NCBI GenBank assembly: GCA_003605035.1
Contig: QZKJ01000113.1
Span: forward strand, 1-64,000
From: Desulfurivibrio sp.
GTDB taxonomy: Bacteria > Desulfobacterota > Desulfobulbia > Desulfobulbales > SURF-16
Direction: 5' to 3'
Length of the DNA: 64,000 nucleotides
Shown: one piece after another, positions 56,401-59,222 of the stretch
How the letters are laid out: the number at the start of each line of letters is the position of its first letter
Numbering within the stretch: position 1 is the stretch's first letter
Translations under genes and position numbers: made by a program
The notes under the pieces: model-generated
Seen by the model: the letters and a program-made list of their open reading frames with translations, nothing else
Databases searched by the model: none
What the model was told of the DNA's origin: nothing

Positions 56401-57724
56401 GAATAGCCTGCCATGCGCGCAGAGCCTTGAGGGCCTTTTCCGCCCGCAGCTGGCCGCGCAGTTTTTTCGGCACCTTTCTGCCGTTCTCGCCGGCGAGATC
56501 GGCAAAGAGGCCGAAGTTGATGTTGGATGGCTGGAAATGGGCGGCATCGGTGGCGGTGAGATGGCGGATAAGCGCGCCATGCGCCGTCTCGGCCGGCGGT
56601 GGCACAGGTTCGCGGCCCTGCAGCAGGTGAGCGGCGTTGATGCCGGCCAGCAGCCCCATGGCGCTTGATTCCACGTAGCCTTCCACCCCGGTGATCTGAC
56701 CGGCCAGCAGGATGTCCTCTCTTGCTTTGAGCTGCAGGGTCGCCTCCAGCACCCTGGGGCCGCAGACAAAGGTATTGCGGTGGATGCTGCCCAGCCGTTC
56801 GAATTCCGCCTGCTCCATGCCCGGAATAAGGCGAAAGACTCGCTGCTGCTCGGAATAGGTCAGTTTGGTCTGAAACCCCACCATGTTGTAATGGGTAGCC
56901 GCCACATTCTCCTTCCTGAGCTGGACCACCGCGTAAGGGTCGCGGCCGGTGCGGGGATCCGGCAGCCCCACCGGCTTCATGGGTCCGAAGCGCAGGGTGT
57001 CCACGCCGCGTTCGAGCATCACCTCGATGGGCAGGCAACCCTCGAAATATTTTTTTTCCTCAAAGTGTTTCAAACTCACCTTGTCCGCCGCTGCCAGGGC
57101 CGTGATAAAGGTCAGGTACTGGTTCCTGTCCATGGGGCAGTTGAGATAGTCTCCCGGCCCCTCGTCATAGCGGGAGGCCTGATAGATGATCTCCCGGTTC
57201 AGCGAGTCGGCGGTGACAATCGGGGCAATGGCATCGTAAAAGGCGAGATGCGCGCCGGTAATTTCCTGCAGGGAGCGGGCCAGCCCGTCGCTGGTCAAGG
57301 GGCCGGTGGCCAGGATGGTCAGCGGATGGGCTGCCGCCGCCCGGGGAATGGCGCTGAGTTCCTCGCGGCGGACCGCGATGGCCGGGTGCGCTGCGATTTT
57401 TTCCGTGATAAAGCGGGCAAACAGAGTACGGTCAACCGCCAGGGCCTTGCCGGCCGGCACTCTGGTTGCGGCTGCGGCAGCCATGATCAGCGAGTCAAGC
57501 TGCCGCATCTCCTCTTTGAGCAGGCCGACGGCTGAAAAGGGGTCATCGGAGCGAAAAGAGTTGCTGCAGACCAGTTCCGCCAGATCAGGGGAGGAGTGGG
57601 CCGGGCTGAATCGCTGTGGTTTCATGTCATAGAGGATCACCCGGCAGCCGCGTTGCGCCGCCTGCCAGGCGGCCTCGCAGCCAGCCAGTCCTCCGCCGAT
57701 GATGGTCAGAAACCGGTCGTCCAT
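56390..57724 (-). CDS. trmFO: Methylenetetrahydrofolate--tRNA-(uracil-5-)-methyltransferase TrmFO
   Basis: A 444-residue FAD protein that makes ribothymidine 54 in tRNA using methylenetetrahydrofolate. The FAD fold opens [19 protein letters not shown], followed by the conserved [19 protein letters not shown] and [20 protein letters not shown]. The C-terminal lines [20 protein letters not shown] are also typical. Its 3' end overlaps the UDG-like gene. Its 5' side faces the tiny-ORF/terminator array, 225 bases away. Confidence 0.96.
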
Positions 57725-57948
57725 TACATATCCTTCTTCTGCTTCATACCGTGCACCAACGGCTCACTGGGCGCTGGGGTGCAAGGCCCCGGCAATTAAC
57801 GGTAAATGTGGAATCAATGTATAAAAGGGGGTGGAAAAGCTGATACTTTACACAATATTGCCTGCTTTGCCAGCAAAATAACAGTATTGCCCGGGGGCTG
57901 TTTGCGGGGCTATTGGATATCTGTTGATGTGCCGGAGGGTTGGGGATG
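57725..57948. other. Region between trmFO and the array
   Basis: No gene. Two direct copies of CA(A/G)TATTGCC lie 29 bases apart near 57853 and 57883. The region must hold the trmFO promoter (leftward) and perhaps one for the array (rightward). I could not pick a clear box set. Confidence 0.3.
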
Positions 57949-57984
57949 AAAAAGGCCGGTGTTGTGAGGGCCACCGGCCTTTTT
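57949..57984 (+). terminator. First terminator, upstream of array unit 1
   Basis: AAAAAGGCCGGTG (57949-57961) pairs with CACCGGCCTTTTT (57972-57984). It has the same core GCCGGTG/CACCGGC as the array terminators but is not preceded by a tiny frame, so it may be the founder. Confidence 0.88.
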
Positions 57985-58006
57985 CAGGTGCTAAGGAGAA
58001 AAAAAA

Positions 58007-58069
58007 ATGAAGAAAAGTGAGAAATTCGAACTGCTAAGAAGTTTCCATTCTTACAGTCTTAATTATTAA
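58007..58069 (+). CDS. Array unit 1 tiny ORF (20 aa)
   Basis: Encodes MKKSEKFELLRSFHSYSLNY with AGGAG eight bases upstream. The core RS(F/V)(H/N)SY recurs in units 2-4. Peptide is basic at the N-terminus and not a membrane helix. Whether it is translated to a functional peptide, or only to control the RNA, is unknown. Confidence 0.4.
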   Translation: MKKSEKFELLRSFHSYSLNY

Positions 58070-58071
58070 GA

Positions 58072-58094
58072 TTCCTCCGGCGGGGAAAGGTTCC
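58072..58094 (+). repeat. Unit 1 hairpin and AGGTTCC element
   Basis: TTCCTC (58072-58077) pairs with GGGGAA (58082-58087), one G-T wobble, then AGGTTCC at once. Unit 2 has TTCCTC/GAGGAA and unit 4 ATCCTT/AAGGAT at the same place. Confidence 0.6.
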
Positions 58095-58107
58095 AAAAAA
58101 CAGGCAT

Positions 58108-58142
58108 AAAAAAACCGGTGATGGGGCGTCACCGGTTTTTTT
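58108..58142 (+). terminator. Terminator ending array unit 1
   Basis: CCGGTGA (58115-58121) pairs with TCACCGG (58129-58135), loop TGGGGCG, T7 after and A7 before. Confidence 0.92.
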
Positions 58143-58165
58143 ACTGCTACAAAAAAGAGGAGAGA

Positions 58166-58264
58166 ATGAGAAGAAAAGAGCAAGTAAGGAGTTTCCATTC
58201 TTACAGTCTTAATAACTTAGATTCCTCCGGTGAGGAAAGGTTCCAAAAAAAAAATCAGGCATAA
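58166..58264 (+). CDS. Array unit 2 tiny ORF (32 aa, read-through form)
   Basis: Starts MRRKEQVRSFHSYSLNN with GAGGAG just upstream. The stop found in units 1, 3 and 4 is lost here, so the frame runs on through the hairpin and AGGTTCC to a TAA just before the terminator. Confidence 0.35.
   Translation: MRRKEQVRSFHSYSLNNLDSSGEERFQKKNQA
58222..58244 (+). repeat. Unit 2 hairpin and AGGTTCC element
   Basis: TTCCTC (58222-58227) pairs perfectly with GAGGAA (58232-58237), loop CGGT, then AGGTTCC (58238-58244). Confidence 0.65.
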
Positions 58265-58297
58265 AAAAACCGGTGATGGGGCGTCACCGGTTTTTTT
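58263..58297 (+). terminator. Terminator ending array unit 2
   Basis: CCGGTGA (58270-58276) pairs with TCACCGG (58284-58290), then T7. Same loop as unit 1. Confidence 0.92.
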
Positions 58298-58320
58298 ATT
58301 ACAACAATAAAGAGGAGAAA

Positions 58321-58371
58321 ATGAAAAGAAAAGAACGAGTAAGGAGTGTCAATTCTTACAGTCTTAATTAA
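58321..58371 (+). CDS. Array unit 3 tiny ORF (16 aa)
   Basis: Encodes MKRKERVRSVNSYSLN, with GAGGAG (58312-58317) upstream. Differs from unit 2 mostly by first- and second-position changes. Confidence 0.4.
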   Translation: MKRKERVRSVNSYSLN

Positions 58372-58417
58372 TAGGATGCTTTTTTTCAGGATAGGTTCCG
58401 AAAAAAACTGTGGGCAT

Positions 58418-58452
58418 AAAAAAACCGGTGATGGGAGGTCACCGGTTTTTTT
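58418..58452 (+). terminator. Terminator ending array unit 3
   Basis: CCGGTGA (58425-58431) pairs with TCACCGG (58439-58445), then T7. Loop changed to TGGGAGG; stem unchanged. Confidence 0.92.
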
Positions 58453-58477
58453 ACAACAACCAAAAAAGAAGAAAAAA

Positions 58478-58531
58478 ATGAGAAGAGAGGAACTGGTAAG
58501 GAGTGTCAATTCTTACCGTCTTATTAATTAA
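58478..58531 (+). CDS. Array unit 4 tiny ORF (17 aa)
   Basis: Encodes MRREELVRSVNSYRLIN. Its upstream purine run (AGAAG) is a poorer ribosome-binding site than in units 1-3. Confidence 0.35.
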   Translation: MRREELVRSVNSYRLIN

Positions 58532-58532
58532 G

Positions 58533-58556
58533 ATCCTTTGGCGAAGGATAGGTTCC
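58533..58556 (+). repeat. Unit 4 hairpin and AGGTTCC element
   Basis: ATCCTT (58533-58538) pairs with AAGGAT (58544-58549), then AGGTTCC. Two pairs differ from unit 2 in both arms at once, which keeps the stem. Confidence 0.65.
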
Positions 58557-58575
58557 GGAAAAAATCCGCCGGATA

Positions 58576-58608
58576 AAAAAAAAGCCGGTGATGAGGGTCA
58601 CCGGCTTT
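58576..58608 (+). terminator. Terminator ending array unit 4
   Basis: AAAGCCGGTGA (58581-58591) pairs with TCACCGGCTTT (58598-58608). Stem is longer, as in the founder terminator; the T-run is shorter. Confidence 0.85.
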
Positions 58609-58609
58609 C

Positions 58610-58740
58610 TGTTTCCATTGCTGGAAACACTGAGAAAAATGAAAAGTGAAAAAGTAAGGTAACTGAGGATGTTAACTCTTACATTTTACAATTCATACAA
58701 CGCTCACTTCTCCCAAAAGGTTCCATGGAAAAATATTTTT
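58610..58740 (+). repeat. Decayed fifth array unit
   Basis: An ATG at 58639 opens a 7-codon frame (MKSEKVR) that stops where other units continue. GTAAGG, a CTTAC segment, and AGGTTCC (58718-58724) remain, but the terminator is replaced by TTCCATGGAA and T-rich sequence. Confidence 0.5.
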
Positions 58741-58799
58741 TTCGCTTTTCCAGAAATTGGCGGTTAGCTGGGGCACAATGTGAATTCTATTTATTTTGA

Positions 58800-58854
58800 T
58801 TGACAAGCAGGGGCGGGTAGAGTATTTAAGTAAGTTATTAATCTTAAATTTAAG
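58800..58854 (+). promoter_or_regulatory. Promoter of the RRM gene, with a palindrome in its leader
   Basis: TTGACA (58800-58805), 17 bases, TATTTA (58823-58828). The perfect palindrome CTTAAATTTAAG (58843-58854) is just past the start point. The leader is about 120 bases, long as in many cold-shock messages. Confidence 0.7.
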
Positions 58855-58955
58855 TTTTAGCATCTTCTTTTCCCGTCAATTTTCTCGCCCGACGCTGCCT
58901 CTTGGCCCCGTTTGATGCCGTTGAAGTTTTTGCTGATCACTTAAAGGAGTACAGT

Positions 58956-59222
58956 ATGAAACTTTTTCTCGGCAACCTCCCTTACAATATGAATGATACT
59001 GAGCTGAACACTCTCTGCTCGCCCTTCGGTACCGTGGTCAGTGCAAAAGTCATCACTGATCATTTTTCGGGCCAGACAAAAGGCTTCGGTTTTGTTGAGA
59101 TGTCCAGCCGTCCTGAAGGTCATAAGGTCATGGAGGGGCTCAACGGCACCGAGATCAGCCACCGTAAATTGATCTGTAACGAGGCCAAGCCGCAAAAAAA
59201 GAAGGGGCCGCGACGTCGTTAA
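58956..59222 (+). CDS. RRM (RNP-1) RNA-binding protein
   Basis: An 88-residue single RNA recognition motif: RNP-2 is LFLGNLPYN and RNP-1 is KGFGFVEM. The start ATG 58956 has AAAGGAG ten bases upstream. The C-terminus is a basic tail (KPQKKKGPRRR). Bacterial RRM proteins of this type, known best from cyanobacteria, bind single-stranded RNA and often respond to cold. The DEAD-box helicase gene downstream on the same strand suits a shared RNA-remodelling role. It has a separate promoter from the array upstream. Confidence 0.93.
   Translation: MKLFLGNLPYNMNDTELNTLCSPFGTVVSAKVITDHFSGQTKGFGFVEMSSRPEGHKVMEGLNGTEISHRKLICNEAKPQKKKGPRRR

What the first reader, a model, noticed from the sequence alone, without database searches (positions are those of the whole stretch)
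57949..58740. Tandem array of tiny-ORF, hairpin and terminator units upstream of an RRM gene
Four units of about 155 bp repeat the same five parts in order: ribosome-binding site, tiny ATG frame, 6-bp hairpin, AGGTTCC, intrinsic terminator; a fifth is decayed. Terminators in series inside one intergenic region are rare and imply either several short transcripts or read-through control. Possible readings are a stack of attenuators, a family of tandem small RNAs, or a set of tiny peptides. I know no family with this layout.
Basis: partly seen in the sequence, partly recalled or inferred. Interest (0 to 1): 0.88.

Follow-up and report, generated by a model that had tools for sequence, protein, structure and literature searches.

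The report
Five tandem stress-sigma small RNA genes
What looked like a row of tiny genes on one DNA strand is, read on the other strand, five side-by-side small regulatory RNA genes, each with its own stress-sigma-factor promoter and terminator and a stretch built to cover the ribosome-binding site and start codon of other messages; the family is conserved in Desulfobulbales bacteria, whose sampled genomes lack the usual small-RNA helper protein Hfq.

Summary
On the minus strand each unit is a small-RNA gene: an ECF/sigmaE-type promoter (GGAACC-N17-TCTWA, the complement of 'TTAAGA...AGGTTCC'), a 5' hairpin, an unpaired U/C-rich stretch whose complement is the 'RBS + ATG + AAGAAA', and a strong terminator, often with a CCUCCC loop. 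The fifth unit is not decayed: it is 98-99% identical between species while its flank is about 84%. A covariance model finds the family in 21 of 22 genomes and all 9 genera of the taxonomic family, usually upstream of adk; related anti-SD RNAs occur in other Desulfobulbales. Orthologs of one RpoE-like ECF sigma gene carry the same promoter (16 of 23; 0.03 expected in total), and in some genomes such an RNA lies beside the sigma operon. The ATG and the peptides are not conserved, and the RRM gene has its own conserved promoter. Best reading: sibling sigma-dependent sRNAs blocking translation start, preferentially of exported proteins. They work like MicA/RybB or FoxI/FoxJ but match no Rfam family, and Hfq is absent from all 58 genomes tested. 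Expression and targets are unproven.

The parts
57949..58094 (-). sRNA gene unit 1 (adk/trmFO-proximal): promoter -35 58089-58094, -10 58066-58071, predicted 5' end near 58059, terminator 57949-57986
   Evidence: model hit E=2.6e-16
   Evidence: sequence; pyrimidine 95%, unpaired 0.93
58108..58244 (-). sRNA gene unit 2: -35 58239-58244, -10 58216-58221, terminator hairpin 58106-58144
   Evidence: model hit E=1.2e-17
58263..58399 (-). sRNA gene unit 3: -35 58394-58399, -10 58371-58376 (TCCTAT), terminator hairpin 58261-58299
   Evidence: model hit E=9.3e-18
58418..58556 (-). sRNA gene unit 4: -35 58551-58556, -10 58528-58533, terminator hairpin 58417-58453
   Evidence: model hit E=2.0e-17
58577..58724 (-). 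sRNA gene unit 5 (RRM-proximal, most conserved): -35 58719-58724, variant -10 GTTGTA 58696-58701, terminator 58577-58612
   Evidence: model hit E=3.1e-13; 98-99% identity to two other species
58800..58828 (+). conserved promoter of the neighbouring RRM gene (TTGACA-N17-TATTTA), outside the array
58956..59222 (+). RRM protein gene (neighbour, divergent; not needed for the sRNAs)
   Evidence: PF00076 E=5.8e-19

Best explanation
The array is five sibling small-RNA genes on the minus strand. Each has its own promoter for an RpoE-like ECF sigma factor and its own intrinsic terminator. When that sigma factor is freed from its anti-sigma, RNAs of about 95-115 nt are made, each with a 5' hairpin, an unpaired U/C-rich stretch complementary to SD-A(n)-AUG-AAG-AAA, and a terminator hairpin whose loop can be a second anti-SD element. 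They pair with translation-start regions, preferentially of exported and outer-membrane proteins, whose genes often begin AUG-AAA/AAG-AAA, and block ribosome binding: the noncoding, repressive arm of an envelope-stress response, working without Hfq. Shown by sequence: strand, promoter/terminator architecture, conservation, promoter shared with the sigma gene, absence of Hfq. Inferred: transcription, sigma dependence in vivo, repression of targets, envelope stress as the signal.
For: GGAAC[CA]-N17-TCTWA followed by hairpin, pyrimidine stretch and terminator in 32 units of 14 genomes (the units were gathered by looking for GGAAC[AC], but model hits not so gathered also carry GGAAC). Terminator stem keeps pairing through changes on both sides at 6 of 13 pairs. 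Covariance model: 21/22 family genomes, 9/9 genera (the counts include the genomes used to build the model); usually directly upstream of adk. ECF sigma orthologs carry GGAAC[CT]TT-N-[GT]TC within 350 nt upstream in 16 of 23 genomes, 0.14% expected per shuffled region. GGAACYTTT-N13-15-TCT has 5 sites in 4.2 Mb: two in the array and one before this ECF gene. In G015 such an RNA starts 14 nt beyond the anti-sigma gene; similar RNAs lie downstream of the sigma gene in G007 and G027. Stretch complementary to SD-AUG is on average 82% unpaired; its 20-mer complement has 24 sites in the genome against 5 in the reversed control, nearly all at start codons. Pairing favours signal-peptide genes for all five seeds.
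Against: No RNA data. Overall pairing energy to start regions is not better than with shuffled seeds, and the exported-protein bias is partly built into MKK starts. Motif counts over 77 genomes do not exceed the reversed control, so the regulon is otherwise undefined. Unit 5 has a variant -10, and ECF orthologs space GTC slightly differently from the TCT of the units. Seven of 23 sigma orthologs lack the strict motif.
Confidence: 0.75

Rival explanations
1. Stack of plus-strand attenuators or a structured leader controlling read-through into the RRM and DEAD-box helicase genes.
For: The hairpins have A-runs before the stem and so could also terminate on plus; four plus-strand units fold into a common multi-helix shape.
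Against: RRM has its own conserved promoter downstream of the array; the element occurs without RRM in other genera and beside adk instead; only 1 of 37 plus-strand pairs shows a two-sided change; no plus promoter found upstream of the array.
Confidence: 0.05
2. A family of tiny peptides (dual-function RNAs or type I toxin genes) on plus.
For: 24 of 32 units have an SD-like motif before an ATG on plus.
Against: ATG absent in several units; frames of 4 to more than 30 codons with no common end; peptides charged, not hydrophobic; the motif is what an anti-SD seed must look like on its other strand.
Confidence: 0.03
3. Minus-strand sRNAs as described, but acting mainly by another route: titrating the ribosome's or a protein's binding sites, or acting on few specific targets rather than on exported proteins as a class.
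For: Anti-SD stretches are generic; pairing energies over all genes are not above shuffled seeds.
Against: Modest but consistent bias to signal-peptide genes for all five seeds, beyond shuffled seeds; candidates include a Porin_5 porin and an OmpA-domain protein.
Confidence: 0.13
4. The sRNAs, or unit 5 at least, depend on the second ECF sigma factor (contig C41) rather than the RpoE-like one on C26.
For: GGAACCTTTTGGGCGGAGATTACGTTTTC lies before the C41 ECF gene and resembles unit 5, GGAACCTTTTGGGAGAAGTGAGCGTTGTATG.
Against: Units 1-4 and relatives match the C26-type promoter (TCT/GTCT -10), and related RNAs lie beside the C26-type operon in some genomes.
Confidence: 0.08

Closest known systems
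sigmaE-dependent sRNAs MicA and RybB of enterobacteria (PMC1804206)
   Same: Own promoter of sigmaE type (GGAACTTTT / GTCAAA there; GGAACC / TCTWA or GTCTTA here), short RNA, terminator, proposed repression of outer-membrane and exported proteins.
   Different: No sequence or covariance-model match; Hfq-dependent there, no Hfq here; single genes there, tandem siblings here; seed here covers SD, AUG and first codons with a long U-rich stretch.
FoxI and FoxJ of Fusobacterium nucleatum (PMC11005410)
   Same: sigmaE-dependent envelope sRNAs in a bacterium lacking Hfq and ProQ; pyrimidine (C-rich) seed; porin target.
   Different: Different phylum, no similarity shown; not tandem; their targets are demonstrated, here only predicted.
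CcsR1-4 of Rhodobacter sphaeroides (PMC8307010)
   Same: Cluster of four homologous stress-sigma-controlled sRNAs; CU-rich loops (the loop detail is from my own knowledge).
   Different: CcsR RNAs are processed from one transcript with the ccaF1 gene; here every unit has its own promoter and terminator.
Sibling sRNA sets such as LhrC1-5 of Listeria and Qrr of Vibrio (own knowledge)
   Same: Several similar sRNA genes, individually transcribed, with CU-rich stretches (LhrC) acting on start regions.
   Different: Other regulators (two-component system, sigma54); no homology tested.

Membership tests
sigmaE/ECF-dependent envelope sRNAs (functional class) | Promoter recognised by an RpoE-like ECF sigma factor | tested here: met
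   By sequence only: same -35 and spacing as the ECF gene's own conserved upstream motif
sigmaE/ECF-dependent envelope sRNAs (functional class) | Discrete short RNA ending at an intrinsic terminator | tested here: met
   Terminator with compensatory changes and T5-T10; RNA itself not observed
sigmaE/ECF-dependent envelope sRNAs (functional class) | Base-pairs with and represses omp/exported-protein mRNAs | tested here: inconclusive
   Bias of pairing to signal-peptide genes, but not stronger overall than shuffled seeds
sigmaE/ECF-dependent envelope sRNAs (functional class) | Expression lost without the sigma factor | not testable with these tools
   Needs a mutant
MicA / RybB homology (Rfam families) | Match to the covariance models | tested here: not met
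   No Rfam match at gathering score in window or nine related loci
MicA / RybB homology (Rfam families) | Hfq as partner | tested here: not met
   No PF17209 in own genome or any of the 58 genomes searched; controls ring
CcsR-type sRNA cluster | Cotranscription with a small RNA-binding protein gene and processing of a precursor | tested here: not met
   Each unit has its own promoter and terminator; the RRM gene is on the other strand with its own promoter
Plus-strand attenuator array | Promoter upstream of the array and no separate promoter for the controlled gene | tested here: not met
Tiny-peptide / type I toxin genes | Conserved start codon and (for toxins) a hydrophobic peptide | tested here: not met

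The most novel reading that the evidence does not exclude
In Desulfobulbales, which lack Hfq in every genome tested, a sigmaE-type noncoding arm of sibling sRNAs blocks the start regions of exported proteins as a class, and in this genus the divergently encoded RRM protein (a eukaryote-like RNA-binding fold) serves as their chaperone, which would explain why array and RRM gene became neighbours.
Probability: 0.1. Interest if true: 0.78.

Novelty: new variant of a known kind. Interest (0 to 1): 0.55.

Why it matters
It gives a little-studied bacterial order a concrete, testable sRNA family: promoter, sigma factor, seed and candidate targets are all predicted. sigmaE-dependent sRNAs are best known from Hfq-containing proteobacteria and, recently, from Hfq-less fusobacteria; a further unrelated, tandemly amplified version would suggest that coupling an envelope-stress sigma factor to RNAs that block start regions arose repeatedly, and it raises the question of which protein, if any, replaces Hfq. 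It is also a caution: a strong anti-SD/anti-AUG seed read on the wrong strand looks exactly like a ribosome-binding site with a tiny gene.

Tried and rejected
Rejected: plus-strand multi-helix/riboswitch reading (37 pairs, one with a two-sided change; the same letters are the promoter elements in relatives). Rfam homology (weak sub-threshold hits are terminators). CsrA-sponge idea for the plus-strand GGA motifs (dropped once the minus-strand promoter was seen; not tested further). Other copies in the same genome by DNA (only self-matches). Wider regulon by motif (no excess over reversed control in 77 genomes; one hit before a TolC-type efflux operon). Error corrected on the way: read minus-strand sigma loci in the wrong orientation; one search replaces them. 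No paper on sRNAs of Desulfobulbales was found in the library.

Full report
WHAT WAS CHECKED. The region 57949-58760 does hold a tandem array with about 155-bp spacing. The window belongs to a 4.22-Mb, 118-contig genome. Relatives found by its TrmFO protein are uncultured Desulfobulbaceae/Deltaproteobacteria and, further off, Desulfurivibrio, Desulfocapsa, Desulfopila and similar, so the host is placed in the order Desulfobulbales (inference from these hits). The array has no other copy in its own genome.

THE STRAND. Reading relatives showed that the conserved letters are better explained on minus: GGAACC, 17 variable bases, TCTWA, about 6 bases, a 5' hairpin, a U/C-rich stretch, a G+C-rich hairpin followed by T5-T10. 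The 32 units compared come from 14 genomes. They were gathered by looking for GGAAC[AC], so that part is conserved by construction; but model hits not gathered this way (for example L099, L104, L112, L115, L121, L122) also have GGAAC there. In the window GGAACC-N17-TC[TC]NA occurs four times, all on minus, all in units 1-4. The terminator scan flags three of the five hairpins as whole terminators, all on minus, and on plus only a truncated stem at the fifth; over 32 units the T-run is longer on minus (mean 7.4) than on plus (4.9). Terminator pairs vary on both sides while staying paired at 6 of 13 positions over 31 sequences.

THE UNITS. On minus there are five complete units. A tree of the genus's units shows a unit-5 lineage, a unit-1 lineage and a lineage of units 2-4, each shared between species; the middle lineage has three copies here. 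Its -10 (GTTGTA) is a variant also found in those species.

CONSERVATION. A covariance model of 31 units finds the element in 21 of 22 genomes and 9 of 9 genera of the family (the miss is 70% complete) and in 32 of 243 genomes of the class; these counts include the genomes the model was built from. Where the neighbourhood could be seen the unit usually lies just upstream of adk, followed by trmFO. G003 keeps a truncated adk; in the window trmFO follows the array without adk. In other Desulfobulbales, including a Desulfurivibrio MAG, weaker model hits 1-4 kb upstream of adk carry GGAACTTTT-N-GTCTT promoters and CUCCUCCC-type stretches; one genome of another family (G046) has two in tandem. No Rfam family matches.

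THE SIGMA FACTOR. The genome has six proteins with sigma70 region 2. The one on contig C26 is an ECF sigma whose best NCBIfam model is RpoE (136.8 bits, below that model's cut-off of 236). It is followed by a 314-aa protein with an N-terminal Cys/His cluster as in zinc-finger anti-sigma factors (motif read by eye). Upstream of the sigma gene stands GGAACCTTTTCACATAAGGATTTGTCTTG. Of 23 orthologs, 16 have GGAAC[CT]TT-N-[GT]TC within 350 nt upstream, against 0.14% of shuffled regions. The Salmonella sigmaE elements are GGAACTTTT and GTCAAA (PMC1804206). In G015 a model hit starts 14 nt beyond the aligned end of the anti-sigma gene, a hit lies downstream of the sigma gene in the related G007, and a similar but weaker one in G027. 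So the motif and, in some genomes, the map position tie the RNAs to this sigma factor. Genome-wide counts of the motif do not exceed the reversed control, so the rest of the regulon is open.

THE SEED. The stretch between 5' hairpin and terminator is 90-100% pyrimidine in its best 20 nt and 82% unpaired on average. Its complement resembles AGGAGAAAAAAATGAAGAAA: SD, start codon and AAG/AAA codons. That is the 'tiny ORF with RBS' on plus. As peptides the frames fail: the ATG is missing from several units and frame length varies from 4 codons to open. In the own genome the 20-mer with up to 3 mismatches has 24 sites against 5 for the reversed control. One is in the array; of the other 23, 20 begin ORFs of usable length, and 16 of these look exported by eye, including a Porin_5 porin, an OmpA-domain protein and a possible outer-membrane cytochrome (below the Pfam cut-off). 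MKK starts favour signal peptides anyway. In a sample of 227 genes all five seeds pair more strongly with signal-peptide genes (p 0.003-0.027; difference -1.4 to -2.5 kcal/mol against -0.3 to -1.0 for shuffled seeds), but mean pairing over all genes is not consistently better than shuffled. This supports the target class without proving it.

HFQ. No Hfq by PF17209 in the own genome or in any of the 58 genomes searched (47 of them at least 90% complete and at most 5% contaminated), with positive controls. Fusobacterium nucleatum is a precedent for sigmaE sRNAs without Hfq (PMC11005410).

THE RRM GENE. It has its own promoter TTGACA-N17-TATT after the array, conserved in five species, so it is not the array's downstream cistron. 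Adjacency was seen only in this genus. A role of the RRM protein as chaperone is speculation, kept as the novel case.

MECHANISM, GRADED. Shown by sequence: minus-strand promoter/terminator units; conservation; motif shared with an ECF sigma gene; absence of Hfq. Likely: transcription by that sigma factor. Inferred: pairing with start regions and repression, exported proteins as main targets, envelope stress as the signal.

VERDICT. A new sRNA family that works like known sigmaE sRNAs but is not homologous to them by any test made here; interest moderate.

Noticed in passing
window 57724-57949; L034 (G003): adk, which separates trmFO from the sRNA locus in other genera, is missing here and truncated in G003; trmFO in this genome seems to stand behind what is the adk promoter in relatives.
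   Followed up: partly
L069 225-361, L070 370-503, L073 288-429 (minus): A second sRNA-like unit of the same kind lies downstream of the ECF sigma operon in G015, G007 and G027, one of them 14 nt beyond the anti-sigma gene.
   Followed up: partly
L055 about 1389 (G000 contig C41): A second ECF sigma gene has GGAACCTTTTGGGCGGAGATTACGTTTTC just before its likely start, resembling the promoter of unit 5.
   Followed up: no
window 58830-58955: The 5' leader of the RRM gene (GCATCTTCTTTTC...CGTTTGATGCCGTTGAAGTTTTTGCTGATCACTTAAAGGAGT) is strikingly conserved across the genus; it may be a regulatory leader of its own.
   Followed up: no
L040 2660-2740; L038 about 2200-2390 on its minus strand: Short inverted-repeat elements of the type CATTCCCGCGAAAGCGGGAATCCAG have inserted between sRNA units in relatives.
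   Followed up: no
L085 1501-1526 (G000 contig C117): An ECF-type promoter match stands before a small exported protein and a TolC-type efflux protein, a possible further member of the regulon.
   Followed up: partly
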